Of a stretch of 64,000 nucleotides of DNA, positions 1 to 14,313 are shown one piece after another. Within the stretch, counting starts at the first letter, position 1; the number at the start of each line of letters is the position of its first letter. The notes under the pieces were generated by a model that saw only the letters and a list, made by a program, of their open reading frames with translations, did not search any database and was not told the DNA's origin. The DNA comes from Nitrosospira multiformis (lineage in GTDB: Bacteria; Pseudomonadota; Gammaproteobacteria; Burkholderiales; Nitrosomonadaceae). The stretch lies in the NCBI RefSeq assembly GCF_003050865.1, contig NZ_QAOK01000001.1:1-64000 (forward strand), read 5' to 3'. Made by a program: the position numbers and the translations under genes.

Positions 1-182
1 TCGCGCTTGGCGCGTGCGCACAGCAATGCTGGATCCCTTTGCCGGGCGGCATATCGCCAATAGCCTGACGGGGCAATCTGCAAGACCTTGCAAAGTGGCT
101 CGACCCCGTAGACGTCGCGGTGCTTGTCGACAAACTGTCTGATTACTTCAATCGGCGGTCGAGCTCCGCCTGGGCGAAAAAA
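1..182 (-). CDS. IS3-family transposase OrfB, N-terminal part (partial)
   Basis: In the -1 frame relative to orfA the - strand reads on through [20 protein letters not shown] and [17 protein letters not shown]. This is the familiar start of IS3-group OrfB, before the rve integrase domain with its DDE residues, which lies off the left edge. The join to orfA is a T6C run (A6 at 177-182 on the + strand), the usual slippery site for -1 frameshifting that makes the OrfAB transposase. The protein would cut and rejoin the element ends. Because it runs off the window, integrity of the catalytic domain cannot be judged. Confidence 0.82.
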
Positions 183-463
183 GCGCTCGCCAGCTTCAGA
201 ATCTCATTAGCACGACGTAGCTCCCGGTTCTCACGCTCAAGTTCATTGACCCGTTCCCGCTCGGCACTGTTGACCCCGTCACGCACACCGTTGTCGACTT
301 CATGCTTGCGCACCCACTCGTTCAAGGTCTGCGGCACACAGCCAATCTTGGGCGCAATCGATTCGATAGTGGCCCACAGCGATGGATACTCGCCGCGGTG
401 CTCCAGCACCATCCGCACAGCGCGCTCACGTACCTCGGGGGAAAACTTGTTCTGTTTCTTCAT
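143..463 (-). CDS. IS3-family transposase OrfA
   Basis: A 106-residue protein with an N-terminal helix-turn-helix (about residues 8-50; [18 protein letters not shown], then a [15 protein letters not shown] recognition helix). A leucine-zipper coiled coil follows (about 65-95; [20 protein letters not shown]). This is the standard IS3 OrfA layout: DNA binding to the element ends plus oligomerisation. It overlaps orfB, and the T-run near its 3' end fits programmed -1 frameshifting. The start is the ATG at 463, with GGAG just upstream. The length is normal for the family and the copy looks intact in this part. Confidence 0.92.
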
Positions 464-513: not shown

Positions 514-1804
514 CGGTACCTGTGGCACGGTTTGCATAGCAGGTTATACCATGGGTGGAGGTTGGGGCCCGTGGACTCGCAAGTATGGTATGTGCTGCGA
601 ACGTGTGGTAGGTGCAACCGTAGTGCTTGGCGATGGCAGTATACGCAAATTGCGTATGAGCAAAAGCTCCGAGGAGGAGCGAGAACTGTCAGAGGAGGAA
701 AGGGAACTGCTGTGGGCGATTAAAGGCGGTGGTGGTTTCAGCTATGGCATTATTACTGAGTTTGTGATCGAAACCTTTGAGCTGCCTTGGGAGATGATCA
801 AGTTTGAGATCAATTGGAACAAATCCCGATATGTGCCTGAAGACAAGATATTTGCCATACGCGACTCAGCGCCCACCCCAACACTTACCGTGTTGAAGGC
901 TTGGGAAGACGTAATTGCTTCTACCGATTCAGAAGCCAATCAGCTGGTAGGGACTAATTTGAAAATTACTGCCAGGCATGCTCCCGAAAATGCGCCCTTT
1001 GATCCTCATGCCGTGAGCCATAGCTGCACCATGTATGGCTACTGGGAGGGAGATGAAGACAGCTTGCTGAAGTTTATACATAAACGTTTCAAATCCACCG
1101 GATATGCCCTTCGTCCCATTAAAGATACCGATAAGGCCGGGAGAAAATACAACAGTAAGACTGAGGGCAACGGTGACAGGTACGTACCCTATGGCGATCA
1201 ATTGATGAGTTCCTGGGATCGCTATTCGTTTCACAACGTAGATCGCCTGATGCAGGGATTGGAAGGGTTGCCATTTCCTCCTGATGAGGATCAACCAGCT
1301 CCCCATAAAATCATCTCTCGCCTCGTCAATGCGCAGGGTCTTGGTGAGGAGGGGCATTACAAACTCCTGAAGAGTCTCACCTCTCCGCTCGTACTACCCG
1401 GCAACGAAGGTTTGGGACTGGTTACCTATATTACTCTGGGTGCCATCACTGGCAATTATTATGAGCATGTGATTACCCCGGAGCAGAAAACAAAAAGTGC
1501 CTTTCCCTATAAGGACAAGCTATTCACCATACAGTACCAAACCTGGTGGAACGAAACTGATGGACAAAAGAAGGAAGCGCAGAACAACGAAGTGTTCACC
1601 CGCGTAAATCGTGCGCTTGACTGGATGGATGTTTGTCGCAATTATGATATTCCCAATACCTCAGGTGCCTTTATCAGTTTCAAAGACAGCTCCGTGCCTA
1701 CCAAAACCTATTTTGATAAAAGTTACGAAGAACTGGTAAGAATAAAACAAACTCACGCGAGAGATCCTTTTAATCACTTTTGCTCACGCAAAACGATTAT
1801 ATGA
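514..1804 (+). pseudogene. FAD-linked oxidase (berberine-bridge-like), 5' end removed by the IS
   Basis: Starting exactly at the IS boundary, one frame reads about 429 residues to a stop at 1804. It opens with [18 protein letters not shown], which matches the end of the FAD-binding domain of BBE-type oxidases (G-C-x-x-V-G-x-x-G-x-x-x-GGG-x-G, where the Cys can carry covalent flavin). The C-terminus (YFDKSYEELVRIKQTHARDP, FNHF) matches the BBE domain. The first roughly 100 residues of the FAD-binding domain are missing, so a working enzyme is unlikely, although the remaining frame has no stop. It is visibly richer in A/T than the genes to its right, which suggests transfer. The substrate is unknown. 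Confidence 0.8.
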
Positions 1805-2224: not shown

Positions 2225-3166
2225 ATGGACCATTCGCATGAGACCGGCGAGCACCTTCACCCCGAAACCTTCGATGAAGTTCTGGCTGAAGGCTTTCCGC
2301 TGGACAAGCTGGAGTTGCTTAAGGAAGTCCACAAGAAACTCGTAAAACCCCTGCTTGGCGGGGCAGCCGCCTTCGCACCCAAACCGCCGGGCGCACCGGT
2401 CACCCGCCAGAATCAGGCGGACCTTTCGCCGGAAAACCGGGAGGCATTTCGCAATGCGGTTGTTCGCCTGGTGGAGGAAGGCAAATACCTGGAACTGGTC
2501 CGGTTTCACATGGACATGTCGCATGATATGCATGGCATGATGGGCGAGACTGGCCTTTATCGTTTTCTGGGCTGGCACCGTCGTTATCTCGTCGAGTTCG
2601 AGCGGGAATTGCAGCGTGTTGACACTGTTCTCCGCCCTGGCTCCAATGAAAAACTCGCGGTTCCCTATTGGCGCTGGGAAGACCCCTTCCCCGCCTGGCT
2701 GAACGGCTTTCTGCCTGCAAACGATCCGGATAGGGGAACGCCGCCACCGTCACGCAAAAATGCTTCGCCACCCCAAAAGGCCAACGCGACTGATGTGAAT
2801 ATCATCGTTAACCAGTTCTCCATCCAGGATACCGGTCTGGACAATGAGAATGATTACACGAAATTCACCTATGGAATCGAGGGCTGGGGCCGGAGGCCGG
2901 ACGGAACAAGCCTTCCCGCTCATAATCACGGTCATGCCTGGGTGGGCGGCATCATGAATAATACGATGTCGTCCCCCACGGATCCGGTTTTCTGGCTTCA
3001 TCATGCTGAAGTGGACCGCTTGTGGCATATCTGGCAACAGGCCAATTCATCAGCGGATCCCAACCTGAGTGGGTCTGATCGCATCATGGATCCGTGGGGG
3101 GAATCGTACGATGACCTGGTGGATACGAAAGACCTGGGTTACGTCTACGACTCGACGTCGTTGTAA
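2225..3166 (+). CDS. Tyrosinase-family copper oxidase
   Basis: A 313-residue type-3 copper protein; the family oxidises phenols and catechols to quinones with O2. The CuA site shows histidines in HMDMSHDMH (about 95-103) and in FLGWHRRYLVEFE (His about 118). The CuB site shows HNHGHAWVGG (about 235-237) and DPVFWLHHAEVDRLWHIW (about 259-260). All parts of the usual six-histidine set appear to be present. The start is the ATG at 2225, preceded by CAGGAGC; an upstream in-frame start at 2174 lacks this. No signal peptide is visible, so cytoplasmic location or export with a partner are both possible. It heads a block of exported redox proteins. The natural substrate is not known. Confidence 0.9.
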   Translation: MDHSHETGEHLHPETFDEVLAEGFPLDKLELLKEVHKKLVKPLLGGAAAFAPKPPGAPVTRQNQADLSPENREAFRNAVVRLVEEGKYLELVRFHMDMSHDMHGMMGETGLYRFLGWHRRYLVEFERELQRVDTVLRPGSNEKLAVPYWRWEDPFPAWLNGFLPANDPDRGTPPPSRKNASPPQKANATDVNIIVNQFSIQDTGLDNENDYTKFTYGIEGWGRRPDGTSLPAHNHGHAWVGGIMNNTMSSPTDPVFWLHHAEVDRLWHIWQQANSSADPNLSGSDRIMDPWGESYDDLVDTKDLGYVYDSTSL

Positions 3167-3258
3167 AAAGAAACCACCCTTCCATTATTACTGGAAGATG
3201 CTTTTTCCGGGCACCGGCAAAAACCAATAATATATGATTTCTCCCAGGAGGCTGCCAC

Positions 3259-5904
3259 ATGAAGTCCAAAAGAGTTGCCATCACTCTCATCGCAATGGGA
3301 TTGACTACATTGCTTATCGGCTGTGCCTACAAGCGCCCGCCCTGGATTGCAGCCGAATGTATTGAAGGTCCGTTTGCGAAGGCAGGAGCAGTGAAGGACG
3401 AGGCACAATGCGCGAATCGATCAGCAGAGAGCTTCCCCGGCGCGGACGAAGATTACTTCAAGGACATGGACTATGGGATCAGCCAAGACCCGCAGAAGGT
3501 TGTCGCCACGCTGGAACCGTTTGTTCCCGGTATTTCCCGCGTTCCGCAAGAAGCTGTAAAAGCCATCGTCAGGGGCCGGAATAACTGGATAGTCTGGACA
3601 GGCGGCGATGACAAGTTCTGGGACCACATCAATATCAACAGCCAGGGCAGCTTCGATCTCCTGAAGGTCCTTTCAAACCATCCGCATCTCATGGAAAAAC
3701 CGGGATATAGCCGGGATAACCGGTGGTACTGGTTCGGTCTTGTCAACGAACCGTGCTTCAGGAAGAACGTGGATACCCAGGGCAGGCCGCTAGGACGCGT
3801 GGACCGCTTCGGCCTGTATCTCGACGTGCGCGATCCGAATTGTGCGGCGGACCCGTTCGAGAATGAAGAGAAATACCCCGGCGTAAAGATCGGCGCGCGC
3901 GGCAAGACAGTGCCGATCGGATCCTACTACGGATATGCGAGTGGGATTGTAGGACTGCGATTGTTCCCCAATCCCGATTTCGATGAAGCCGCAAAAAAGC
4001 GCTGGAACCCGGAAAGATACTATACCGATCCGTCCTACTACAACGATGCCAACCTGGTGAAGCCCTATCGGGTCGGGATGTCGTGCGGGTTCTGTCATGT
4101 AGGCCCGAACCCTTCCAATCCGCCCAAGGATCCGGAAAACCCGCAATGGGCCAATCTTAATTCCAATCCCGGCGCACAATATTTCTGGTTCGACCGGATA
4201 TTCGCCTACGAAGCTGACAAGAACAGCTTCGCCTATCAGTTCCTCAGTACCAATCGCCCAGGCGCCCTGGATACCTCGCTCATTTCAACGGACTACATAA
4301 ACAATCCGCGCAGCATGAATGGGGTATATAACCTGGGCGCGCGGATGAAAAATGCGTTGCGCTCCGGCAAGGAGCAACTGACGGGTGATGAGCTGAACAA
4401 TAAGCAGTTTAATGATTATCGGGAGATATCTCCCGAAAGTCCGCTGAGAAGGTTCTTCGAAAAATCGGGCACGGTGTTCACCCCACGGGTGCTCAAGGAT
4501 GGAGCGGATTCTGTGGGCGCACTCGGCGCCTTTAACCGCGTTTTCGTAAATATCGGACTTTTCAGCGAGGAATGGCTTCAGCATATCAATCCACTCATCG
4601 GCGGCAAGCCGTTCACGCCGTTCCCGATCGCCACCGCCAACAAGAATTCCAGCTATTGGCGGGCAACGGAAAACCAGACTCTGGATACATCGCTGTTTTT
4701 CCTCGCAGCCAGCCGGCCGGATTATCTGGCGGAAGCGCCGGGAGGCAAGCGTCATCTGACCACTGACGCAGCCACCCTGAAACGCGGCAAGGAAGTATTT
4801 GCGGAGAACTGCGCCGGCTGCCACTCGAGCAAGCTGCCGGAGAAAGCGGTGAAATTTTTCCCCAATAACGGTTGCGTCGGGCCTGATTATCTGAGTTGCT
4901 GGAACCAGTACTGGAACTGGACAAAGACCGACGAATTCAGGCAGGAGATGAAAGAAATCGTTCTGAAGGAGGATTTCCTTGCTGACAATTATCTTTCTAC
5001 CGAGTTGCGTGTTCCTGTCACCCTCCTTGAAACGAATATTTGCGCTTCCCTTGCAACCAACGCGCTCAAGGGCGATACCTGGGATAATTTTTCCTCCACC
5101 TCATACAAGGAACTGCCTTCCGTCGGGAGTGCGCTGATTCACCACCCCGTGACACGGGAGCCACGCACCTATTCCATGCCTGGGGGGGGACGCGGGTATA
5201 TCCGACCACCTTCGCTTGCAAGCCTTTGGTCGTCCGCACCCTTTCTGTTGAATAACACCCTGGGCAAATTCTATCCTTCGGGTACTGTTGAGGACAGGAT
5301 GAAATCCTTTTATGGAGGGATAGAGCAATTGCTCTGGCCGGAAAAACGCTACTGCGACCAGGAAGACCTGTACGGGGGTGGTTACTATGCAGAAAAGAAT
5401 TATGGGGCTCAGGAACGAACAAGCTGCGAAAGCCGCACTTATGTCACCCGCTCGGGCAAGGAAGTGCCAGGCATCATCGACCGAACCTGGACTAGAAGCT
5501 GGCTGCTGATACCCGAGGGTTACCTGCCCTGGTATGTCAGGTTGCCGATCCATGATGGCGTATTGAACCTGGGACCCATACCGGAGGGCACGCCCGTCAG
5601 CCTTCTGTCCAATCTGGACCTCGAAAAAAGAGGCGGCGAAGTCAAGACGCTGCTGAAGACACTCAAAGGTCATCTGGGGGATTTGATCGCCGCCAAGATA
5701 ACACCCGACCGGATCACGGATGCGGAATTACGCAAGGTCTATTCTGACCTGGTCGATCCCTTCATCGACGTGAGCAAATGCCCGGACTTCGTGGTCAACC
5801 GAGGTCACTATTTTGGAACCGATTACCTGCCGGGAGACGAGGGGCGGCCGGGACTCGGAGATAGCGATAAACGCGCATTGATCGAATTCCTCAAAACGAT
5901 GTGA
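3259..5904 (+). CDS. Large di-haem cytochrome c lipoprotein (RoxA/MauG-like superfamily)
   Basis: 881 residues. An N-terminal signal ends in the lipobox LLIGC (Cys about 22), so it should be a membrane-anchored lipoprotein outside the cytoplasm. Two haem c motifs are seen, CGFCH (276-280) and CAGCH (518-522). The C-terminal third has RPPSLASLWSSAPFLLNN, resembling the L-x-x-x-W-x-x-x-P-[FY]-L-x-N segment of di-haem MauG/RoxA-type oxidases. The start at 3259 has AGGAGG about 8 bases upstream. It is a paralogue of the protein at 10989-13526, sharing the first haem segment (GLRLFPNP, CHVGPNPSNPPKDPENPQW) and the second. It may take electrons from, or oxidise products of, the neighbouring oxidases; that role is inference. 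Confidence 0.8.
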   Translation: MKSKRVAITLIAMGLTTLLIGCAYKRPPWIAAECIEGPFAKAGAVKDEAQCANRSAESFPGADEDYFKDMDYGISQDPQKVVATLEPFVPGISRVPQEAVKAIVRGRNNWIVWTGGDDKFWDHININSQGSFDLLKVLSNHPHLMEKPGYSRDNRWYWFGLVNEPCFRKNVDTQGRPLGRVDRFGLYLDVRDPNCAADPFENEEKYPGVKIGARGKTVPIGSYYGYASGIVGLRLFPNPDFDEAAKKRWNPERYYTDPSYYNDANLVKPYRVGMSCGFCHVGPNPSNPPKDPENPQWANLNSNPGAQYFWFDRIFAYEADKNSFAYQFLSTNRPGALDTSLISTDYINNPRSMNGVYNLGARMKNALRSGKEQLTGDELNNKQFNDYREISPESPLRRFFEKSGTVFTPRVLKDGADSVGALGAFNRVFVNIGLFSEEWLQHINPLIGGKPFTPFPIATANKNSSYWRATENQTLDTSLFFLAASRPDYLAEAPGGKRHLTTDAATLKRGKEVFAENCAGCHSSKLPEKAVKFFPNNGCVGPDYLSCWNQYWNWTKTDEFRQEMKEIVLKEDFLADNYLSTELRVPVTLLETNICASLATNALKGDTWDNFSSTSYKELPSVGSALIHHPVTREPRTYSMPGGGRGYIRPPSLASLWSSAPFLLNNTLGKFYPSGTVEDRMKSFYGGIEQLLWPEKRYCDQEDLYGGGYYAEKNYGAQERTSCESRTYVTRSGKEVPGIIDRTWTRSWLLIPEGYLPWYVRLPIHDGVLNLGPIPEGTPVSLLSNLDLEKRGGEVKTLLKTLKGHLGDLIAAKITPDRITDAELRKVYSDLVDPFIDVSKCPDFVVNRGHYFGTDYLPGDEGRPGLGDSDKRALIEFLKTM

Positions 5905-5920
5905 CGCACTGCACCAGAAT

Positions 5921-5945
5921 CACCGCTCCCCTCGGGGGAGCGGTG
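5921..5945 (+). terminator. Hairpin after the di-haem cytochrome gene
   Basis: A perfect 11-bp inverted repeat (CACCGCTCCCC / GGGGAGCGGTG) with a 3-base loop lies 17 bases after the stop codon. Only a weak T-rich stretch (TTCTTATT) follows, so termination is plausible but not certain. Confidence 0.6.
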
Positions 5946-6063
5946 CGAATTCTTATTGCAAAGTGGAGGACAAACCGAAGGGAAGTTGCAGCCAAACCGG
6001 TGGAAACTTTTCCTTTATAATGATTTTTGCGACTCTCCACAGAAAAATACTATTGGTTTCGCC

Positions 6064-8049
6064 TTGATCTCCCGACGCAGTTTTGTCAAGCTCAGCGCCC
6101 TGCTGGTATCCGGCGCAAGCACCCTTCTTGCCAGTTGCTCTACCCTTCTCTGGAAGGGTTCCTCGCAGCCCTTTGCTCCCCTGGATTGTCCGCCAGCCGC
6201 GGAAAACAAATTTGATTACATCATCATCGGTTCCGGCGCAGGAGGCGGCCCACTCGCCTGCAACCTTGCCCTAAAAGGTTTCCGCGTGCTGTTGCTGGAG
6301 GCGGGGGGAGACGACGACCCCTGTGAATATTACGTTCCCGCCTTTCATGCGCGTGCCTCGGAGCACGAGGCCCTGCGCTGGGACTTCTTTGTACGCCACT
6401 ACGCCGATGACGAGCAGCAGAAACGGGATGACAAGTTCGTTCCGGAACAGAACGGTGTGCTTTACCCGCGCTCTGGCACCCTTGGGGGATGTACTGCGCA
6501 CAATGCGATGCTGCTGATCTATCCCCACAATAGCGATTGGGACTATATCGCCGAAAAGACCGGCGATGAATCCTGGCGCAGCGAAAACATGCACAAGTAT
6601 TTCAAGCGGATGGAGCGCTGCGAATATGCCAGCCGGGCTGAAGAACCGGATAGTCGGCATGGATTCGGAGGCTGGCTTCCGACAAATCTGGCAGAGCGGG
6701 AAATGCTGCTGAGAGACAAAGTCCTGAGAAGGCTTTCAAAAGCTGCGCTCGAGGAATCGCTGAGCGGCATTATCAACCCGATCAAACGAACGTTGCTCAA
6801 GATAAAAACCCATGGCGATCCCAACGATTGGCGTTTCATTCGCAGAAGGCCGGAAGGCTTGTGCAAGATACCGATCACTACCCGGCAGGGGCGTCGGGCT
6901 GGAACCCGGGAATACATATTGCGCGTTCGCGAGCAATGCCCGAATTTACTCGAAGTCAGGACTCATGCGCTGGCAAAGCGCATCCTGCTCGATGAACAGA
7001 ACAAGGCCTATGGGGTGGAGTACATTTCCGGCGCCCACCAGTACCGTGCGGATCCGCGGCATGGGACAGCAACCCCAGGGATCGTGGAAACCGTGCTTGC
7101 AGAACGGGAGGTGATTGTTTCCGCAGGCGCATTCAATACACCCCAATTGCTCAAGCTCTCCGGCATCGGCTCTCGGGAAGAACTGGTGAGCCATGGCATC
7201 GAGGTAAAAGTAGACTTGCCAGGGGTTGGAGAAAACCTTCAGGATCGTTATGAACTGGGAGTGGTTACCCGGCTCAGGGAAAACATCCCCCTGATCAAGG
7301 GAATGAAACTTCGCTGTCCCGCCCCCGGCGAAGCACCCGATCCCCAATTCAGCCAGTGGCTTCAGGGCGTCGGGCCCTACACCACCAATGGTGCGACGAT
7401 CGCGCTCATGAAGCGATCGTTTCCCGAACGCCCCAATCCCGATTTATTCATTTTCGGCCTGATCGGGGATTTCCGGGGATATTATCCCGGTTATGCCGAT
7501 AATATCGCCAGAACGGAAAATGCCTTTACCTGGGCTATCCTGAAGGGTCATACCGCTAATACAGCCGGCCGGGTCACGCTCCGCTCCGCCGATCCCCGCG
7601 ATGTACCGGATATAAACTTTCATTATTTTTCGGAAGGCACGAACGCTGGAGAAGACATGGAATCGCTTGTCGCCGGAGTGGAAGCAGTGCGCAATATCGT
7701 CAGGCTTTCCTCCGACGTGATCGAGGAGGAGGTTGTGCCTGGTCCGGAAGTCAAGAGTCGTGAAGATATACGGCGTTTCATAAAAAACCAGGCGTGGGGA
7801 CACCATGCCTCGTGCAGTTGTAAAATGGGCGCTGCCACTGATCCCATGGCTGTCGTCGACAGCCGGTTTCGCGTTTATGGCACCCGGAATCTGCGCATTG
7901 TGGATGCTTCCGTTTTTCCCAAAATACCCGGTTTCTTCATCGCTTCATCCGTCTACATGATCAGCGAAAAAGCATGCGACGTGATCAGCGAGGATGCGGA
8001 AAGCATGTCGGCCGAAAGCGTAAGCCGACACTTACATTCCCGTTCATAG
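6064..8049 (+). CDS. GMC-family FAD oxidoreductase, Tat-exported lipoprotein
   Basis: About 661 residues. The FAD motif GSGAGGGPLACNLALKG and LLLEAGG are near the N-terminus, followed by the GMC signatures PRSGTLGGCTAHNAML and AGAFNTPQLLKLSGIG. The C-terminal HHASCSCKMG carries the likely catalytic His. The N-terminus has SRRSFVK, a near-perfect twin-arginine motif, then a hydrophobic stretch ending LLASC, a lipobox. The protein would fold with FAD inside and be exported by Tat as a lipoprotein. GMC enzymes oxidise alcohols or sugars; acceptors could be the adjacent cytochromes (inference). The second catalytic position, usually Asn or His after IPG, reads IPGFFIASSVYM. The start is uncertain: TTG at 6064 is chosen because it precedes the Tat motif closely, though the frame is open from 5956. 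Confidence 0.88.
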   Translation: MISRRSFVKLSALLVSGASTLLASCSTLLWKGSSQPFAPLDCPPAAENKFDYIIIGSGAGGGPLACNLALKGFRVLLLEAGGDDDPCEYYVPAFHARASEHEALRWDFFVRHYADDEQQKRDDKFVPEQNGVLYPRSGTLGGCTAHNAMLLIYPHNSDWDYIAEKTGDESWRSENMHKYFKRMERCEYASRAEEPDSRHGFGGWLPTNLAEREMLLRDKVLRRLSKAALEESLSGIINPIKRTLLKIKTHGDPNDWRFIRRRPEGLCKIPITTRQGRRAGTREYILRVREQCPNLLEVRTHALAKRILLDEQNKAYGVEYISGAHQYRADPRHGTATPGIVETVLAEREVIVSAGAFNTPQLLKLSGIGSREELVSHGIEVKVDLPGVGENLQDRYELGVVTRLRENIPLIKGMKLRCPAPGEAPDPQFSQWLQGVGPYTTNGATIALMKRSFPERPNPDLFIFGLIGDFRGYYPGYADNIARTENAFTWAILKGHTANTAGRVTLRSADPRDVPDINFHYFSEGTNAGEDMESLVAGVEAVRNIVRLSSDVIEEEVVPGPEVKSREDIRRFIKNQAWGHHASCSCKMGAATDPMAVVDSRFRVYGTRNLRIVDASVFPKIPGFFIASSVYMISEKACDVISEDAESMSAESVSRHLHSRS

Positions 8050-8080
8050 CTCCCCGCACTCTGCCAGCAAGGAGAACGGT

Positions 8081-10069
8081 TCACTGATTGATTCCCGCTC
8101 CTTCCTGTTGCGGCGCCTCGGAAGGTTCTACAGCGGTAGCGGGGGGCAGGCACGGACGCAGGTTCTCATAACCTGCGGCAATCATTTCCGTCACGTCAGG
8201 GGTACGTCCCGTCTCCGAACGCAGCCACTCCGCAACCTTGGCCCGGAGTAAAGCAATGGATGGATGAGGCGTTGTCTGCATCCAGGGGCTGCCCTTCCGC
8301 GATGCGAGCGGCGGCGGCATGGGCACTTTGGCACGGAAGGCAGGTGCAATCTCCCACATCGAGAGGCGCACGAAGATACGTGGCGCACATTGCGCCAGGC
8401 TCCTGCTGACCTGGTTCCTATCTCCCGCAAGAAAGTTTGGCGGAAAACGCTCGGCTGTAAGGTGGCAAGATCCGCACGCTTTTTTGAAAACGGTTCCCGG
8501 CTCAGGTACAGGCAGCCCTGTTTCGATGTCAGCCTGTACAGGTATTGGCAGAAGAGGTGGTTCCCTCTCTTTGCCCACCACATCCAGGTCAAGTGCCGAG
8601 CGGAGGAGCGCCCGGGTTAGAGGTGCCTCCGGCCATGCGAACCGTGATATTCTCCGGCGCAAGGGGGCGAAATCTTCGGTGATGGTAACGAAAGCTTTGG
8701 CGCCATCCCGATGTTGCTTCACCTCGATGTTTTCAATCAGGTTCCCATTCGCAGTCCGTGCCTTCAATCCATCGCTGGTCGCCATCCCGCCTTTAAACAG
8801 GAAATGCAGCGGCTGTTCATTGCCGAGAGCAAAAGCCTCGATAAAATTTTTGCGTCCATGCAGGATGAACTCTCCCTGGCAATCGTATTGTCCCCCGGAA
8901 AGCACGCAAGGCGCAGCATAAACACGGCACCTGGCTCCGGCACCACCGGCAAGCCGTGCATCGAGATCATGCAGGTCCTTCTCGGGGATGAGAGCAGCCA
9001 GTCCCGTCACGAAGCGACGCGCCAGCAGCGGATCGCCCGCTGTCCATACCTCAAGAGGTGGACGCGGCGCAAGAGGATCAAACTCCGCGGCAACATGCGA
9101 CTTTGCAACCCCTTCCCCATCTTCTTCCGCATCTTCCGCTAGCGCAAGCGGATTCCGATCTGGAAGGTCGGGATTCGGAATGGCAAGACCGCCGGGCCAG
9201 CGTGCAGCAAATTGGCGTGAGAATGCCTGTTCCAGAGTGTTCACGTCTGAAAACCTGCCTCCCGACAGGCGGTACTGGATTGCAGCTGTTATTGCCAGCG
9301 GGCGGCAGGTCGAGTCGCATGCTTCGAGCCACACACGGTGTATTACACCGATGAGATTGGCCCGGTCAGTTGCATCGTCAATAAGATTGGGGAGATCAAC
9401 GCCGCGATGCACGGGAATTCCATAAAAGCTATCCCTTACTTGGGACAGCTTCTCCGCTACCCGTCGATTCGCATTGGTTTCATCCCATAACTGCCGCGAA
9501 AAAATCGGCGCGTGATTCTGGTGGCAAGCCATGCAAATATTCCTGTTTGCATAAACCAGCCGCGGTGTGCCGCCTTCCCTATAATCCCTCACTGCCTGAA
9601 ATTCAAAGCGTGCGGCGGCCTCGTTGTAGCTGATGACTTCAATCACATTCGTCTTTTCCTGGTAAGCAAGATAGAGGCGGTCTTTTGCGAACAATGGACC
9701 TTTGCCCTCCCCTGTCACCGCGACAATTGCACGGGGATAGGCGAAAAAATCGGGTGCGGCGGCAGTGCGCTGCAGAGATCGGCCAAGCGGAACCAGCACC
9801 GAGGTTATGCACGCTCCTTCCCAACACCCAAGCTGTCTCTCGATCTTCTGAACCAGGGCTGCAAACGGGAACGGAATACTATCGGCTGCAATGAAGTCGA
9901 ACAGCGACCGGCCGGATGGGGGAAGTACCGGGCCGGACACAGCCGGATCAACGGCCCAACTCGGACCCTGGCACTCCGTTACGCAGTTGCCGCTGGCGCC
10001 AGCAGACGGGGCGTAGATCAGGGAGATACAGGCTCCGATAATCGTCCCGAGCAATACAGTACGGCACAT
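8081..10069 (-). CDS. Exported di-haem cytochrome c
   Basis: About 662 residues with an N-terminal signal peptide (MCRTVLLGTIIGACISLIYA, cleavage near AGASG). Two haem c sites are seen, CMACH (179-183) and CGSCH (532-536). The region between shows no family I can name. The C-terminal part around the second haem resembles the end of mono-haem cytochrome domains. The start is the ATG at 10069, only 2 bases after the stop of the preceding gene (TGA at 10072-10074), so translation is probably coupled. It is the last gene of a three-gene operon and meets the GMC gene tail to tail. A periplasmic electron-transfer role is likely; its partners are inference. Confidence 0.78.
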   Translation of the reverse strand: MCRTVLLGTIIGACISLIYAPSAGASGNCVTECQGPSWAVDPAVSGPVLPPSGRSLFDFIAADSIPFPFAALVQKIERQLGCWEGACITSVLVPLGRSLQRTAAAPDFFAYPRAIVAVTGEGKGPLFAKDRLYLAYQEKTNVIEVISYNEAAARFEFQAVRDYREGGTPRLVYANRNICMACHQNHAPIFSRQLWDETNANRRVAEKLSQVRDSFYGIPVHRGVDLPNLIDDATDRANLIGVIHRVWLEACDSTCRPLAITAAIQYRLSGGRFSDVNTLEQAFSRQFAARWPGGLAIPNPDLPDRNPLALAEDAEEDGEGVAKSHVAAEFDPLAPRPPLEVWTAGDPLLARRFVTGLAALIPEKDLHDLDARLAGGAGARCRVYAAPCVLSGGQYDCQGEFILHGRKNFIEAFALGNEQPLHFLFKGGMATSDGLKARTANGNLIENIEVKQHRDGAKAFVTITEDFAPLRRRISRFAWPEAPLTRALLRSALDLDVVGKEREPPLLPIPVQADIETGLPVPEPGTVFKKACGSCHLTAERFPPNFLAGDRNQVSRSLAQCAPRIFVRLSMWEIAPAFRAKVPMPPPLASRKGSPWMQTTPHPSIALLRAKVAEWLRSETGRTPDVTEMIAAGYENLRPCLPPATAVEPSEAPQQEGAGINQ

Positions 10070-10071
10070 GG

Positions 10072-10986
10072 TCAGTTTTCCGACCTGAAACCAATTGGAC
10101 GGACCTGCTCCCCTGGCCAGCAATCCTGTCGTGTTGACTCCCCTCCAGAAAACCCCAGACTATGGCGCTGATCGAGATTCCTGTCGTAGAGGGTAAAATT
10201 CAGAAAAAAGATTTTGCCGAGATAGACGCGCCCGAGATAGAACCCTGGCCGGATCATGCGGATTTCGTCGCGCACCTGGAGGCCATGGCGGCCAACCAGT
10301 TGATCAAGCAATTCCGGATACCCTGGAATATCGTCGCTGAAGGAGTAATCGACGATGATCGACTCCCGGCGCGAATCAAGCAGGCTCTGCCCGCAGTAGA
10401 GGCGTGCGGGGAACATCAGCCACTGTTCCCGGCCCTCTATAGTGATAGTGGGAATGGCTGCCGGATGGGAGCCAAGCAAGTGGTCGAGGGGCGTCAGGTC
10501 ATCAACGCGAGTGAACGCCAAGCGGACGTCGCCCTGAAACACCTTCCTGCCCCACAAGTACCTGCAAAGAAGCTTGAACCTGTTTGTGCTGGCATTCGCA
10601 AACCCCGGCAATTCACTGATGATTCTGGTTTCGGTGGTGATTTGATCATCAGGAATACCATTCGGGGAAAACGGCTGCGCATCGAACAATCCATCAGGGA
10701 TCACACCGGCAGTCAGGCGCGCATAGATCTGATCTATCTGCTCCTGATCGTATGCAGCCAGCATTTCAGGCGTGAGTTCGGCCAGATGGGCAGAAGTGAG
10801 GGGAAACTCATGCTCAACCCGCGCAAAATCGGGCTTGCTCGCATAATAGCCGCCATAGCTGGCAAACCTGATGGCGGAAGGTGACGAGCCATGCAAGCTA
10901 CCGCAGGCGCCAAGTGTAACGCCTGCACAGACAATGACCGTTTTCGCCGCCCTTATCCCTATCCTTATCCCTGTCCCTGCTTTCAT
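10072..10986 (-). CDS. Putative lipoprotein of unknown function in the cytochrome operon
   Basis: 304 residues. The N-terminal signal has a lipobox-like LGACG (Cys about 28), so export and lipid anchoring are likely. I recognise no domain. The body contains two Cys (RLYCGQS and a C-terminal CWPGEQ) besides the lipobox and FKLLCRY, and no CxxCH. The start codon lies 2 bases after the stop of the upstream cytochrome gene, and the next gene starts 2 bases after its own stop. This implies a shared function, perhaps as an anchor or assembly partner of the cytochromes (inference). The 5' end is built on a short GGGATA-type repeat. Confidence 0.7.
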   Translation of the reverse strand: MKAGTGIRIGIRAAKTVIVCAGVTLGACGSLHGSSPSAIRFASYGGYYASKPDFARVEHEFPLTSAHLAELTPEMLAAYDQEQIDQIYARLTAGVIPDGLFDAQPFSPNGIPDDQITTETRIISELPGFANASTNRFKLLCRYLWGRKVFQGDVRLAFTRVDDLTPLDHLLGSHPAAIPTITIEGREQWLMFPARLYCGQSLLDSRRESIIVDYSFSDDIPGYPELLDQLVGRHGLQVRDEIRMIRPGFYLGRVYLGKIFFLNFTLYDRNLDQRHSLGFSGGESTRQDCWPGEQVRPIGFRSEN

Positions 10987-10988
10987 TG

Positions 10989-13526
10989 CTAAAGTGTAGC
11001 GAGAAAGGCGATAAGTGCATCCTTGTCGCCATCGGACAGATCCTCTCCAAAAGGATGCCCCTCGTTCTCGATCTCTGCTGTACAGAAACCGTAGCTTGTC
11101 ATGAGGCGAGGAAAGTTGCGGAGAACTTCAGCCATGTGTCCTGGTTCCTTCGCCAGCACTCCGGCGGCAGAGCGCAGATCTCCGACAATTTTCCTGCCCT
11201 CACCGCGGCCAAACTGCCTGACGAGCTTCTCCTCCGCCATGGCGGGTTTGCGTCTGGCAAGAAGCATGTCGTTCACGAAGGCCTTGTGCTGGAAGCTTGT
11301 AACCCTGCCGACGCTGAAACCCGCCGGCAGGACCAGGTTAAAGCCGAGCAATTCACCCTCACGCTTACCATCCCAAACCCTGGCACCGAGCGTGACTTGT
11401 ATGTCGTTATCGATGCGGGGAATCTTTGGTGTGCGCCTGCCGGGATTGAGCAAATCCCGCATCGAGGCCACATACAGCTTGAAACGCCCCTCGACACTCG
11501 GATCATATGACCAGCAGCCCTGTGCTTTATCTACCGGGATTGCCTGCCCGTCTGCATCCACATACGGCGACCGGTAGAAATTGTTCATCCGGTTTGCCGG
11601 CTTCCCGCAAAGCTCCGGACCAACGGAATTGTTGTGCAAAAACGGGGCATGGGCCCATACTGACAACAGCGAAATATTACGATAGTAGCCTCGGCCACCA
11701 TCATGCGGTTCGCGAATGTTCGGATCTGGAGACCGCGCGCGAAGTGTTTCGGAGCCGTATTCTTCCCAGATGTGTCCCATCATATGATTCGAATGCAGGG
11801 AACGGCAACGATGCGTGCCTGCTTCAGAGACGAAGACAGATTCATCCGAGCCCAGCCAGTCCGCGCGCATCCCGGTCGCATCGACTGCCCGAAAGTCCCG
11901 GCTGTGGAACGCTCCACCCACGAGCTCCGGAATAGACGAATGACAGCGTGCGCACTTATCCGCAAAGACTTCACGGCCACGTCTCACTGCATTTTCCCCA
12001 AACTTTTTGTTCAGGTCAGCTTCGAGATCCGCCATGGTATAAACGGCATTCGGGCTTGAATCACGTAGCGCAAGCTCGCGAGCGCCAACGAGATCCGTGG
12101 CTTCGCCTTCCCTCGACAAAAGAAAGTCGTGTATGTTCTCCAGCCGATCTTCAATGGCGCGAAAACTGGCGCAATCCCGGCGGCACTGGCCAATGTCGAA
12201 GGGTGTCTGGCCAAAATTGCGTTGATGCGGATCGAGTTGGCGAAGGTCAGTCAGATGGTTCATCCAGCATTGCTCTGAACAGCTTCCGATATTGATATAG
12301 ACACGCTGAATAGCCTCAAGCGTGCCGGTCGAGTCTTCACCGCCCTTCAGAAGGTGATGAACTGTCGCAACAGACTTCTCCCGTAGCCAGCACTTGCCAT
12401 TGCGGCCGGGTTCGCACCAGCAGCGGGGGTCGGCAACCTTGCACGACGCAACCTTGCGCCACCGCATGACCTGTTCATTATCGAACGTCGGCCGTACTTG
12501 GGTATGAGTAATGGCGTTCGTGCTCCCGGGATTGTGCACCTGATCAGTAGCGATCCCTGACGTATCAGACGTGCCTGGCCGCGCCTGCCCGAACAACCGC
12601 GCCTCAAGCGTCGCTCCCGCCATTCCGGAGGTGAGTATTTCCGAAATTCGCAAATACTGGTTCCCGATGGTGCCGCGGATGTTTTCCCACTTTGGATCAG
12701 CCGGATTTTTGGGAGGCTTCAATGGGTCGAAAGCGACATGGCAGGACGCGCAGGTGATGCCGATCAGAAACGGTGGCTCGATCGAGCCATCGGCAAGGCG
12801 GCTGAATTCGCTGCTGCCCATTCCCGGTTGTTTTGGGAGCGGCACGCGATATCCATCCCAACCTGCGAGACTCCCGTTCAATGCGATCCATCGAGATCTG
12901 TCAAAACGGGGATTGGGAAATTTTCTGAAACCGATAGCACCGGTTGAGGTGCCAAAAGCGAGATCACATGCAGACTGACGCTGGTCCTTGCTCCCGTGAT
13001 GCGGATCTGTCCTTATGGGAAGCGTGTCCGCATGATCGCAGGCCGGATCGCGATAACCAGCATGCCCTACGTGCTTGAGCAGTTCCTCATCCCCGGGGCA
13101 CCATTCGAACCCGTAGGTTTCTTCCCGCGTCCTCGCGGGGCAACCCGCGGTACCCGGCACGCAGCAGTCAGGATCGTTGATGAGACCCCACGCTGCAAAG
13201 CGATCTTCATGCTCATGCGCGTTGAGGACGCGATACCAGTCGACCTGTACATTGAGGCGCTGGGGAAACACATAGGTATAAAAGCGGCTGTTGCCGGCAG
13301 TCGCCTTGTACCAGATCTCGCGACCGGCTCGCTCCGAAGCAGTAAGCCCGGATGCCGCGGCATAAAATCCGGAGGTATCGGCCCTCGGCCACACTTTCAT
13401 CGCAGACGCGCCGGATGGCTGTGCAGAAGTGAGGCGCAATCGGCCATCGTTTGGCATCGCATGGCCCGGCAATATCGCACCGACCAGCAACAGAATGATC
13501 CGCGCCAGAACATGTGTTTTCTTCAT
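10989..13526 (-). CDS. Large di-haem cytochrome c, paralogue of the 3259-5904 protein
   Basis: 845 residues with a plain Sec signal peptide (MKKTHVLARIILLLVGAILP, cleavage near GHAMP) and no lipobox. Haem motifs are CASCH (259-263) and CARCH (525-529). Shared blocks with the lipoprotein on the other side are GAIGFRKFPNPRFD, CASCHVAFDPLKPPKNP, RGREVFADKCARCHSS and the NISLLSVWAHAPFLHNNSVG segment typical of RoxA/MauG-like di-haem enzymes. Several extra Cys pairs near residues 115-150 (DCCVPGTAGC) may form disulfides. It is the first gene of a coupled operon. Oxidase, peroxidase or electron-carrier activity are all possible; I cannot choose between them from sequence alone. Confidence 0.8.
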   Translation of the reverse strand: MKKTHVLARIILLLVGAILPGHAMPNDGRLRLTSAQPSGASAMKVWPRADTSGFYAAASGLTASERAGREIWYKATAGNSRFYTYVFPQRLNVQVDWYRVLNAHEHEDRFAAWGLINDPDCCVPGTAGCPARTREETYGFEWCPGDEELLKHVGHAGYRDPACDHADTLPIRTDPHHGSKDQRQSACDLAFGTSTGAIGFRKFPNPRFDRSRWIALNGSLAGWDGYRVPLPKQPGMGSSEFSRLADGSIEPPFLIGITCASCHVAFDPLKPPKNPADPKWENIRGTIGNQYLRISEILTSGMAGATLEARLFGQARPGTSDTSGIATDQVHNPGSTNAITHTQVRPTFDNEQVMRWRKVASCKVADPRCWCEPGRNGKCWLREKSVATVHHLLKGGEDSTGTLEAIQRVYINIGSCSEQCWMNHLTDLRQLDPHQRNFGQTPFDIGQCRRDCASFRAIEDRLENIHDFLLSREGEATDLVGARELALRDSSPNAVYTMADLEADLNKKFGENAVRRGREVFADKCARCHSSIPELVGGAFHSRDFRAVDATGMRADWLGSDESVFVSEAGTHRCRSLHSNHMMGHIWEEYGSETLRARSPDPNIREPHDGGRGYYRNISLLSVWAHAPFLHNNSVGPELCGKPANRMNNFYRSPYVDADGQAIPVDKAQGCWSYDPSVEGRFKLYVASMRDLLNPGRRTPKIPRIDNDIQVTLGARVWDGKREGELLGFNLVLPAGFSVGRVTSFQHKAFVNDMLLARRKPAMAEEKLVRQFGRGEGRKIVGDLRSAAGVLAKEPGHMAEVLRNFPRLMTSYGFCTAEIENEGHPFGEDLSDGDKDALIAFLATL

Positions 13527-13580
13527 ACCCTCCTTACTACAGCGGCTGAAGGATGGATTTCAGATATTGCCTTGAAAAAA

Positions 13581-13662
13581 TCTGGATACCCACTTTCGCG
13601 GGTATGACGGCGCCTTGATGGGCCGGTCGCCAGAATTCCTCACTTCAGCGTTCGCGGATGAG
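13581..13662. repeat. REP-like intergenic repeat, copy 1
   Basis: This stretch (TCTGGATACCCACTTTCGCG onward, with ATGACGGCG and GGAATTCCTCACT-like blocks) matches 28962-29042 closely over about 80 bases. Its first part forms a small palindrome (ACCCACTTTCGCGGGT). It lies between two genes and is probably a dispersed element, perhaps also an mRNA end. Confidence 0.7.
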
Positions 13663-13794
13663 GAAACCACAGTGGAGGCAGGCCTCTACGACCTCAGTCT
13701 AGTATATAAACGTCCCGCTTTCTGCGAGTCAACTCTTTGCGGGCGGCTGGTATAATCAACGTGAATATCTGGAGAACCGGGTTAGAAAGATTCG

Positions 13795-14313
13795 ATGCGA
13801 AAAATCCTTCCATCACTACTGTTATTCATGGTTTCGGTGGGCAATGCGGCAGAAACCCCTATACGGCCCGGCTTATGGGAAATAACGACGACGTCGATGC
13901 TATTGACCCTGGTGCCACAGATTCCCCCTGAGCAAATGCGGCAGCTGACGAATCTGGCGAAGCAATATGGACTGGATCTACCCCGGATCGAGAATGGAGC
14001 GGCCACCTCCAGAATCTGCATCACTCAGGAAATGGCGGACCAGGAGATTCCTTCCTATCTGCACGTTCACGAAGCGGGATGCAGCATCAAGAATGCCCTC
14101 CGCACCGAGAATGACTACAAGATGGATCTCGTCTGCACCAATCCTCAATTGCAGGGCAAGGGGCGGGCTGAGGGTTCGTTTACGACATCGGAGAGTTTTT
14201 CGGGATGGACCGTGTTCAACGGCAGGGTGCAAAACACTCCCGTCAATGAGCACGCCGATACCAGGGGACGCTGGATCAGCGCGAGTTGCGGCAAGGCAAA
14301 ATCACCGCATTGA
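13795..14313 (+). CDS. DUF3617 family secreted protein
   Basis: 172 residues. The N-terminal signal peptide (MRKILPSLLLFMVSVGNAAE) is followed by IRPGLWEITTTS, the start of the DUF3617 domain (K/R-P-G-L-W-E). Four Cys remain in the mature part (RICIT, AGCSI, LVCTN, SASCG), consistent with disulfides in the periplasm. The family's function is unknown. It stands alone between the cytochrome operon and mpl, which is on the opposite strand. Confidence 0.78.
   Translation: MRKILPSLLLFMVSVGNAAETPIRPGLWEITTTSMLLTLVPQIPPEQMRQLTNLAKQYGLDLPRIENGAATSRICITQEMADQEIPSYLHVHEAGCSIKNALRTENDYKMDLVCTNPQLQGKGRAEGSFTTSESFSGWTVFNGRVQNTPVNEHADTRGRWISASCGKAKSPH

What the first reader, a model, noticed from the sequence alone, without database searches (positions are those of the whole stretch)
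2225..13526. A compact block of exported redox enzymes: tyrosinase, GMC flavoenzyme, three di-haem cytochromes and an unknown lipoprotein
Seen: six adjacent genes, of which five carry export signals (two Sec, two lipoprotein, one Tat lipoprotein) and three carry two CxxCH motifs each; a type-3 copper oxidase leads the block. A truncated FAD oxidase sits beside it. Known: tyrosinases, GMC and BBE enzymes oxidise phenols, alcohols and sugars; MauG/RoxA-like di-haem proteins oxidise proteins or polymers. Inference: together they may form an extracytoplasmic oxidation chain for organic or phenolic matter, which is odd for an autotrophic ammonia oxidiser. I know of no described system with this set.
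Basis: partly seen in the sequence, partly recalled or inferred. Interest (0 to 1): 0.8.

Follow-up and report, generated by a model that had tools for sequence, protein, structure and literature searches.

The report
Exported half of a lipid-oxidation locus
A cluster of secreted redox enzymes in an ammonia-oxidising bacterium turns out to be one half of a larger gene locus, carrying a lipoxygenase and a cyclooxygenase-like enzyme, that probably oxidises fatty acids; related strains carry a different set of probable fatty-acid-oxidising genes at the very same chromosomal spot.

Summary
The six genes are as described: tyrosinase (no export signal), di-haem lipoprotein CYT1, Tat-lipoprotein GMC, then on the other strand CYT3-LIP-CYT2. 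They are two modules, not one chain; outside the window's genus I saw each only without the other. In six relatives the block continues into P170-P434-DyP-P401, a lipoxygenase, a full-length cyclooxygenase-like protein, a subtilase and a hydrolase. The window's contig starts inside an IS3 that splits the 'truncated' FAD oxidase; its 5' half and the lipoxygenase side lie at the end of contig C16. In a genome of another class CYT1-GMC-P170-P434-DyP-P401 is one operon. In 11 of 11 lipoxygenase-free genus genomes read at this site, it holds a fatty-acid-type di-haem dioxygenase homologue plus a P450. Best reading: exported arm of a two-compartment lipid (oxylipin-type) oxidation locus, replaceable at one site. 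Phenol oxidation is not the core: the tyrosinase is optional. Substrate and activity are untested. Lipoxygenase in an ammonia oxidiser is already mentioned in print (PMC11941309).

The parts
143..463 (-). IS3-family transposase OrfA; the IS element starts off the contig and its right end is at 513
   Evidence: PF01527 5.7e-11, NF033516 39.8 bits, below its cut-off 160; terminal repeats TGAAyCGCCCCGG at both ends (window ~501-513 and C16 tail), CGGT flank on both sides
514..1804 (+). 3' part of a BBE-type FAD oxidase gene interrupted by the IS3; the 5' part is at the end of contig C16 (L082:15485-16036)
   Evidence: PF01565/PF08031; C16 tail; no hit in 7 loci of relatives
2225..3166 (+). TYR: type-3 copper tyrosinase, no export signal seen; optional member
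   Evidence: PF00264 1.1e-35; present here in 5 of 7 genus genomes that have CYT1
3259..5904 (+). CYT1: di-haem c-type lipoprotein, RoxA/FadCcp-like, signature His replaced by Leu
   Evidence: two CxxCH, lipobox, APFLLNNT; NF040606 35.2 bits, below cut-off 150
5956..8049 (+). GMC: Tat-exported lipoprotein GMC flavoenzyme; real start is probably nearer 6060
   Evidence: PF00732/PF05199, RRSFVK..LASC; next to CYT1 in 7 of 7 genus genomes with CYT1 and in 5 of 6 outside (6th at a contig end)
8081..10123 (-). CYT2: exported protein with two CxxCH and no known family; start perhaps ~10069
   Evidence: no PDB fold match at E<=0.001 from a model of mean pLDDT 59
10072..10986 (-). LIP: lipoprotein of a family homologous to the P170 protein of the lipoxygenase side
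   Evidence: no Pfam/NCBIfam hit; hhalign with P170 alignment prob 99.0, E 2.4e-18
10989..13526 (-). CYT3: Sec-exported di-haem protein, RoxA/FadCcp-like, signature His kept
   Evidence: two CxxCH, APFLHNNSVG; NF040606 40.1 bits, below cut-off 150
13795..14313 (+). DUF3617 gene: boundary of the locus; with mpl (14373-15743) it marks the shared chromosomal site
   Evidence: PF12276 1e-15; same flank in island-bearing and island-less relatives

Best explanation
The block is the exported arm of a two-compartment lipid-oxidation (oxylipin-type) locus. SHOWN: gene content, synteny, conserved adjacency. INFERRED: in the cell or at the membrane face, the lipoxygenase and the COX-like protein put O2 on unsaturated fatty acids, and the DyP / P401 / P434 / P170 cassette transforms the hydroperoxides. 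In the periplasm, the GMC lipoprotein oxidises an alcohol group of the products and hands electrons to its fixed partner CYT1, a di-haem lipoprotein that has lost the signature His of its catalytic relatives. CYT3-LIP-CYT2 is a second, dispensable exported module with a more typical di-haem peroxidase/dioxygenase-like CYT3. The tyrosinase, and the broken FAD oxidase of this strain, lie between two halves of what is elsewhere one CYT1-GMC-P170-P434-DyP-P401 operon and look like insertions. The fatty acids are probably taken from outside, because nitrifiers are not known to make polyunsaturated ones (recalled).
For: (1) Lipoxygenase in 8 of 29 genomes, all 8 in the genus: the 7 genus genomes (of 23) with CYT1, plus fragmentary G002, where GMC is seen beside CYT3-LIP-CYT2. 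CYT1 orthologues were not found in the other 15 (GMC itself was not searched there). (2) One contiguous locus mpl-DUF3617-[CYT3-LIP-CYT2]-GMC-CYT1-(TYR)-P170-P434-DyP-P401-LOX-COX-S8-hydrolase-rnb in six relatives. (3) The one-strand operon CYT1-GMC-P170-P434-DyP-P401 in G902. (4) CYT3-LIP-CYT2 beside P401-P434-DyP in G050, and in G316 with one TPR gene between. (5) LOX matches 15-lipoxygenase structures over its length (3e-71); the COX-like protein matches prostaglandin synthases full length (2e-68), membrane-binding region included, with the Tyr385/His388/Tyr348 positions kept (residues named in PMC13049297). (6) Near CYT1-GMC or CYT3-LIP-CYT2 elsewhere: patatin (L046, L101, L108), animal-haem peroxidase (L098), FadCcp-like pairs (L046, L047, L049, L064). 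(7) LOX overlapping a FadCcp gene in G611. (8) At the same site 11 of 11 lipoxygenase-free genus genomes read carry a FadCcp-P450 pair; two FadCcps scored 601.0 and 591.6 bits, cut-off 150. FadCcps oxygenate fatty acids in P. aeruginosa (PMC4496055, PMC5155153, passages).
Against: No expression, product or activity data. CYT1 and CYT3 fail the FadCcp model cut-off (35 and 40 of 150 bits). The COX-like protein has Asp where COX has its distal His (6 of 6 orthologues; His207 numbering recalled). The lipoxygenase half shows no export signal by eye while this block is exported; no transporter between them was identified. The window and C16 are joined only through the split FAD gene, IS ends and synteny, not by one contig. 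Of the six CYT1 loci outside the genus, two show no recognised lipid or DyP gene (G357, G414; both on short contigs), and in a third (G630) the patatin-like call is by eye, with no Pfam hit. Two CYT3-LIP-CYT2 loci have no lipid-oxidation gene that I recognised in the stretch read (L063, L065). The signature-His argument about CYT1 is weak: a bona fide FadCcp (L102) also gave no match to my pattern. Co-occurrence in the genus is not corrected for ancestry.
Confidence: 0.62

Rival explanations
1. Peroxide and radical defence: the haem proteins (DyP, P401 if it binds haem, COX-like peroxidase, di-haem cytochromes) remove H2O2, lipid peroxides or nitrogen radicals made by ammonia oxidation, with GMC/CYT1 feeding electrons.
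For: Several peroxidase-type families sit together; di-haem cytochrome c peroxidases are classic peroxide reductases (recalled).
Against: A lipoxygenase and a COX-like protein with the dioxygenase Tyr/His kept are makers, not removers, of peroxides; patatins nearby in other genomes; 15 of 23 genus genomes do without the lipoxygenase locus.
Confidence: 0.17
2. One reading: an extracytoplasmic chain that oxidises phenolic or other soil organic matter, led by the tyrosinase.
For: Tyrosinase and BBE oxidase in the window strain; five exported proteins.
Against: Tyrosinase has no export signal and is absent here in 2 of 7; BBE was seen only in the window genome and is broken by an IS3; tyrosinase was not seen beside either module outside the genus.
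Confidence: 0.1
3. RoxA-like oxidative cleavage of polyisoprenoids or other hydrocarbon polymers by the di-haem proteins.
For: Weak RoxA-like matches of CYT3 (PF21419 19.5 bits; RoxB 14.7 bits).
Against: Below the curated cut-offs (26.7 for PF21419; 900-1000 bits for RoxA/B); recognised neighbours are fatty-acid-type enzymes.
Confidence: 0.06
4. Tailoring genes of a small-molecule natural product.
For: Many oxidases in one patchy island; the alternative cassette has a P450.
Against: I recognised no backbone synthase (PKS, NRPS, terpene) in the locus stretches listed (by eye and partial family searches).
Confidence: 0.05

Closest known systems
P. aeruginosa PA2077/PA2078 oleate diol synthase (FadCcp), periplasmic (PMC4496055, PMC5155153, passages)
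   Same: Exported proteins with two CxxCH; PYLHNGSV-like signature in CYT3 and in the FadCcp-like neighbours of module B; true FadCcp at the same site in related genomes
   Different: CYT1/CYT3 are larger and below the family cut-off; CYT1 lacks the signature His; here joined to GMC, LIP, CYT2, LOX, COX-like and DyP genes
Cyanobacterial COX-related 10S-dioxygenase plus catalase-related lyase (Nostoc punctiforme; PMC13049297 passages)
   Same: Bacterial COX-like protein of about 530-540 aa with membrane-binding region and kept Tyr385/Tyr348/His388
   Different: Here with a lipoxygenase beside it, an Asp at the distal-His position, and an exported GMC/di-haem arm; P401's likeness to catalases is by eye only (profile vs PDB: no match)
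Bacterial lipoxygenases, e.g. LoxA of P. aeruginosa; a review also names Nitrosomonas europaea (PMC11941309, passage)
   Same: Lipoxygenase in a bacterium, and in an ammonia oxidiser
   Different: The passage says nothing of a locus, a COX-like partner or an exported arm
Membrane GMC dehydrogenases with c-type cytochrome partner (fructose or sorbitol dehydrogenase type; recalled)
   Same: Exported GMC flavoenzyme with an adjacent c-type cytochrome
   Different: Partner is a di-haem RoxA/FadCcp-like lipoprotein, not a tri-haem subunit (recalled)
Rubber oxygenases RoxA/RoxB
   Same: Weak similarity around the C-terminal haem domain of CYT3
   Different: Scores far below curated cut-offs; different neighbours

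Membership tests
FadCcp / NF040606 di-haem cytochrome c peroxidase (CYT1, CYT3) | score above curated cut-off (150 bits) | tested here: not met
   CYT1 35.2, CYT3 40.1 bits
FadCcp / NF040606 di-haem cytochrome c peroxidase (CYT1, CYT3) | two CxxCH motifs | tested here: met
FadCcp / NF040606 di-haem cytochrome c peroxidase (CYT3) | PYLHNGSV-type signature with His | tested here: met
   APFLHNNSVG; signature from PMC4496055
FadCcp / NF040606 di-haem cytochrome c peroxidase (CYT1) | PYLHNGSV-type signature with His | tested here: not met
   APFLLNNT in the 10 genus rows (7 genomes; three loci fetched twice) and L097, APYLLNNT in L129, APYLLNNS in L098; His in L099; no pattern match in L100, L101, nor in the true FadCcp L102
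RoxA/RoxB rubber oxygenase (CYT3) | curated cut-off | tested here: not met
   14.3 of 1000 and 14.7 of 900 bits
Type-3 copper tyrosinase (TYR) | Pfam tyrosinase domain above cut-off | tested here: met
   124.4 vs 22.6 bits
Type-3 copper tyrosinase (TYR) | phenol oxidase activity | not testable with these tools
   -
GMC oxidoreductase | both Pfam domains above cut-off | tested here: met
   88.6 and 114.1 bits
Choline dehydrogenase (GMC) | equivalog cut-off | tested here: not met
   237.8 vs 732.1 bits
Lipoxygenase (neighbour on C16) | Pfam domain; His ligands and C-terminal Ile | tested here: met
   PF00305 1.8e-58 for the window genome's copy; His by eye; C-terminal Ile in 6 of 8 rows, the window genome among them, Val in G002 and G611
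Cyclooxygenase-type dioxygenase (neighbour on C16) | Tyr385, Tyr348 and proximal His388 equivalents | tested here: met
   read by eye from the alignment
Cyclooxygenase-type dioxygenase (neighbour on C16) | distal His207 equivalent | tested here: not met
   Asp in 6 of 6 orthologues
DyP-type peroxidase (neighbour on C16) | curated cut-off | tested here: not met
   TIGR01413 62.6 vs 100.5 bits; PF21105 22 vs 27.5 bits for the orthologue L053
Catalase / catalase-related lyase (P401) | profile match to catalases | tested here: not met
   no Pfam hit to E 10, no PDB match at E<=0.01

The most novel reading that the evidence does not exclude
Ammonia oxidisers of this genus keep one chromosomal site for interchangeable lipid-oxygenation cassettes: FadCcp plus P450 in one group, and in another a bacterial 'arachidonate-cascade-like' island (lipoxygenase, COX-like dioxygenase, DyP cassette, exported GMC and di-haem arm). 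Its job may be to oxidise unsaturated fatty acids exuded by plants or released by other cells, which are known nitrification inhibitors (linoleic and linolenic acid; recalled), either to detoxify them or to send out oxylipin signals.
Probability: 0.25. Interest if true: 0.88.

Novelty: new variant of a known kind. Interest (0 to 1): 0.7.

Why it matters
A lipoxygenase in an ammonia oxidiser is already mentioned in print (Nitrosomonas europaea, in review PMC11941309, passage). What I did not find, in an open-licence library only, is a description of this locus: Nitrosospira with lipoxygenase or prostaglandin terms or DyP, lipoxygenase and GMC together (search 78); these were judged from listings, and one search gave 20 of 70 papers. 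If right, lithoautotrophic nitrifiers handle exogenous lipids with several families of oxygenases, and LIP/P170, CYT2, P434 and P401 become candidate new parts of bacterial oxylipin chemistry. It makes a practical question testable: do strains with the lipoxygenase island resist fatty-acid nitrification inhibitors better than sister strains with the P450 cassette?

Tried and rejected
Plasmid tblastn of CYT2: no match. PDB sequence searches with CYT1, CYT2, CYT3 alone: nothing useful. P401 profile and P170 profile against PDB: none. LIP structure model: pLDDT 36, discarded. CYT2 model pLDDT 59; Foldseek found nothing at E<=0.001, so no fold is claimed. Rubber-oxygenase filing rejected on cut-offs. 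Phenol-oxidation unit rejected because the tyrosinase and BBE are optional. The idea that all six genes form one operon rejected (convergent strands, independent loss). 'P401 is a catalase' kept only as an impression. The nitrification-inhibitor idea: the one paper looked into for it (PMC13056722, term search) has no mention of linoleic acid or fatty acids, so that link is recalled.

L065/L105, L043/L061, L044/L066 and L045/L062 are the same loci; other overlaps between unnamed and named genomes were not checked. Site reading covered 11 of the 15 lipoxygenase-free genus genomes (G001, G014, G017, G018 not read). Co-occurrence within the genus is not corrected for ancestry. Whether the window genome has the P450 elsewhere was not tested. 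GMC was not searched genome-wide, nor TYR beyond the loci and the own genome (two further weaker tyrosinase-like places, on C2 and C8).

Full report
WHAT IS THERE. The six ORFs are real and placed as stated. TYR (2225-3166), CYT1 (3259-5904) and GMC (5956-8049) run on +; CYT3 (13526-10989), LIP (10986-10072) and CYT2 (10123-8081) run on -, so the two halves converge with 31 bases between stops. Domain searches give tyrosinase, GMC, and short cytochrome c matches for CYT1 and CYT3; CYT2 and LIP have no family above cut-off. CYT1, CYT2 and CYT3 have two CxxCH each; none of 2000 shuffles of each protein gave two. Lipoboxes are seen in CYT1 and LIP, a twin-arginine motif with lipobox in GMC, a lipobox-like match also in CYT2, none in TYR.

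THE 'TRUNCATED' OXIDASE. The window is the start of contig C1. It begins in an IS3-family element whose right end is at 513, and the FAD gene continues from there. The tail of contig C16 carries the 5' half of a FAD oxidase gene and the other IS end, with the same CGGT on each side. The gene is therefore interrupted, and C16 most likely joins C1. No hit to it was found in seven loci of relatives.

THE LOCUS IS BIGGER. In six relatives with longer contigs (G003, G007, G008, G012, G019, G020) the block continues beyond TYR/CYT1 into P170, P434, DyP, P401, then lipoxygenase, COX-like protein, subtilase and a hydrolase, ending at rnb-tonB-aroE (the last names by eye). In the window's genome the same genes lie on C16. 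LOX: PF00305 1.8e-58 for the window genome's copy; best structure a 15-lipoxygenase, 5MED, 3e-71. COX-like: prostaglandin synthases 2e-68 over residues 12-519, including the membrane-binding region, with the Tyr385, Tyr348 and His388 positions kept and the distal His changed to Asp. DyP: TIGR01413 62.6 bits, below its cut-off of 100.5. Subtilase PF00082 1.5e-43; the hydrolase matches alpha/beta-hydrolase models below cut-off. P434, P401 and P170 have no family. The lipoxygenase is in 8 of 29 genomes examined, all in the genus (8 of 23): the seven with CYT1 and fragmentary G002, which shows GMC. In a sample of 369 genomes of the class, 4 have PF00305 at 1e-10, the window genome among them.

TWO MODULES. 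CYT1-GMC: adjacent in 7 of 7 genus genomes with CYT1; outside the genus CYT1 was found in G357, G414, G415, G630, G669 (8 of 369 genomes at 1e-30; the other three are the window genome and G440 and G459, whose hits are CYT3-type) and in G902 (met through P434). GMC is next to it in 5 of 6, the sixth (G357) at a contig end. None of the five class genomes has a CYT3 orthologue (G902 not searched). CYT3-LIP-CYT2: same order in the window, G002, G008, G019, G020 and outside in G046, G050, G051, G058, G316, and MAGs labelled Thauera, Zoogloeaceae and Thiotrichales; G050 has three genes inserted, and in G316 the stretch read ends within CYT3. Two distant loci (G039, G440) have CYT3-CYT2 without LIP; L050 has CYT3 alone and L060 CYT2 alone. 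I saw the two modules together only in the window's genus.

LINKS BETWEEN THE HALVES. In G902 (same phylum, not the same class) CYT1-GMC-P170-P434-DyP-P401 is a single tight operon (gaps -94, -8, 9, -1, 3 with the starts taken). In G050 CYT3-LIP-CYT2 is followed by P401-P434-DyP; in G316 likewise with one TPR-protein gene between. Full-length P434 outside the genus was met in five genomes (G050, G316 among 389; G753, G902, G1034 among 398); DyP and P401 are beside it in 5 of 5; P170 in three, and in the two without P170 the module with LIP is there. LIP and P170 are homologous (hhalign 99.0 %, E 2.4e-18). The other P434 hits at 1e-20 (12 genomes) are partial matches in longer open frames; I read five of them (L133-L137), all with DyP homology beside or fused.

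HISTORY AT THE SITE. Between GMC and DUF3617: N341-N609 plus CYT3-LIP-CYT2 in Nv4 and Nv6, the module alone in the window genome and Nl7, N609-N341 alone in G003, a scar in G007 (about window 8335-13234 missing) and nothing in G012 (about window 8121-13710 missing). dN/dS window versus Nl7: TYR 0.088, CYT1 0.086, GMC 0.078, LOX 0.121, COX-like 0.119, P401 0.032, P434 0.090; CYT3 0.239, CYT2 0.266, LIP 0.361, in keeping with a dispensable second module.

ALTERNATIVE CASSETTE. I read the same site in 11 of the 15 lipoxygenase-free genus genomes. All 11 carry a FadCcp-type gene and a P450-type gene on the island side of DUF3617; in ten the pair lies between DUF3617 and rnb, in one (G016) rnb was not within the 16 kb read. 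Two of the FadCcps were scored: 601.0 and 591.6 bits against a cut-off of 150; two P450s: PF00067 about 5e-17. The pair was found in none of 16 loci from the eight island-bearing genomes nor in the window; a FadCcp elsewhere in the window genome (C32, 477 bits) matches at 36 % only. FadCcps PA2077/PA2078 of P. aeruginosa oxygenate oleic acid in the periplasm and the products leave the cell (PMC4496055, PMC5155153, passages read).

HOW IT MAY WORK. Shown: gene content, adjacency, conservation, replaceability. Inferred: LOX and the COX-like protein make fatty-acid hydroperoxides; the DyP cassette converts them; in the periplasm GMC oxidises an alcohol function and reduces CYT1. CYT1 is the fixed partner of GMC and has Leu for the signature His in most orthologues, which would fit electron transfer better than oxygenation; this is weak, since one true FadCcp gave no pattern match either. 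CYT3 keeps the His. TYR sits between two halves of what is one operon elsewhere and is optional. Patatin-type phospholipases near the modules in G058, G415 and G050 fit release of fatty acids; G630 has a similar-looking gene without a Pfam hit. A FadL-type porin at 51898-53157 of the window (PF03349 4.9e-89) could bring in fatty acids; the link is a guess.

WHAT SPEAKS AGAINST. No activity or expression data; CYT1 and CYT3 are not members of FadCcp by score; the DyP is below its family cut-off; the COX-like protein lacks the distal His; the contig junction is inferred; some loci of either module have no lipid gene that I recognised in the stretch read. A peroxide-defence role is the main rival.

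NOVELTY. Every catalytic family is known, and bacterial oxylipin makers are known. A review names lipoxygenase in Nitrosomonas europaea (PMC11941309, passage). A review of 2015 calls bacterial cyclooxygenases putative (PMC4420034, passage); a cyanobacterial COX-related 10S-dioxygenase has since been described (PMC13049297, passages). The combined locus, the exported GMC/di-haem arm, the LIP/P170 family and the swap of cassettes at one site did not show up in the listings of searches.

Noticed in passing
window 51898-53157 (+): FadL/TodX-type outer-membrane transporter (PF03349 4.9e-89), 38 kb from the block.
   Followed up: partly
L149-L159 (11 genus genomes): FadCcp plus cytochrome P450 pair, with an ankyrin-repeat protein next to it in several (one scored), at the site where the window strain has the lipoxygenase island.
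   Followed up: partly
L102:6965-10548 (G611): A FadCcp gene (NF040606 483 bits) overlapping a lipoxygenase gene: a two-gene fatty-acid oxygenase unit in another genome of the same class.
   Followed up: no
L044:849-3655, L054:15154-17906, L153:11197-13994: N341-N609 pair (609 aa, one CxxCH, no Pfam family) that comes and goes at the same site.
   Followed up: no
L133:7856-12079, L134:7287-11153, L135:7667-10984: Long open frames (1106 to 1408 aa) in which the C-terminal half of P434 is fused to a DyP-like region.
   Followed up: no
L137:7058-11554 (G779): A tyrosinase-like gene shortly before P434-like and DyP-like genes in a distant genome, so tyrosinase near this cassette may not be unique to the window's genus.
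   Followed up: no
L131:4687-13387 (G1034): Animal-haem-peroxidase protein (PF03098 1.7e-68) beside P434, a DyP-P401 fusion, a second P401 and P170.
   Followed up: no
L107:8957-10672 (own genome, contig C32): A bona fide FadCcp (477 bits) elsewhere in the window's genome.
   Followed up: partly
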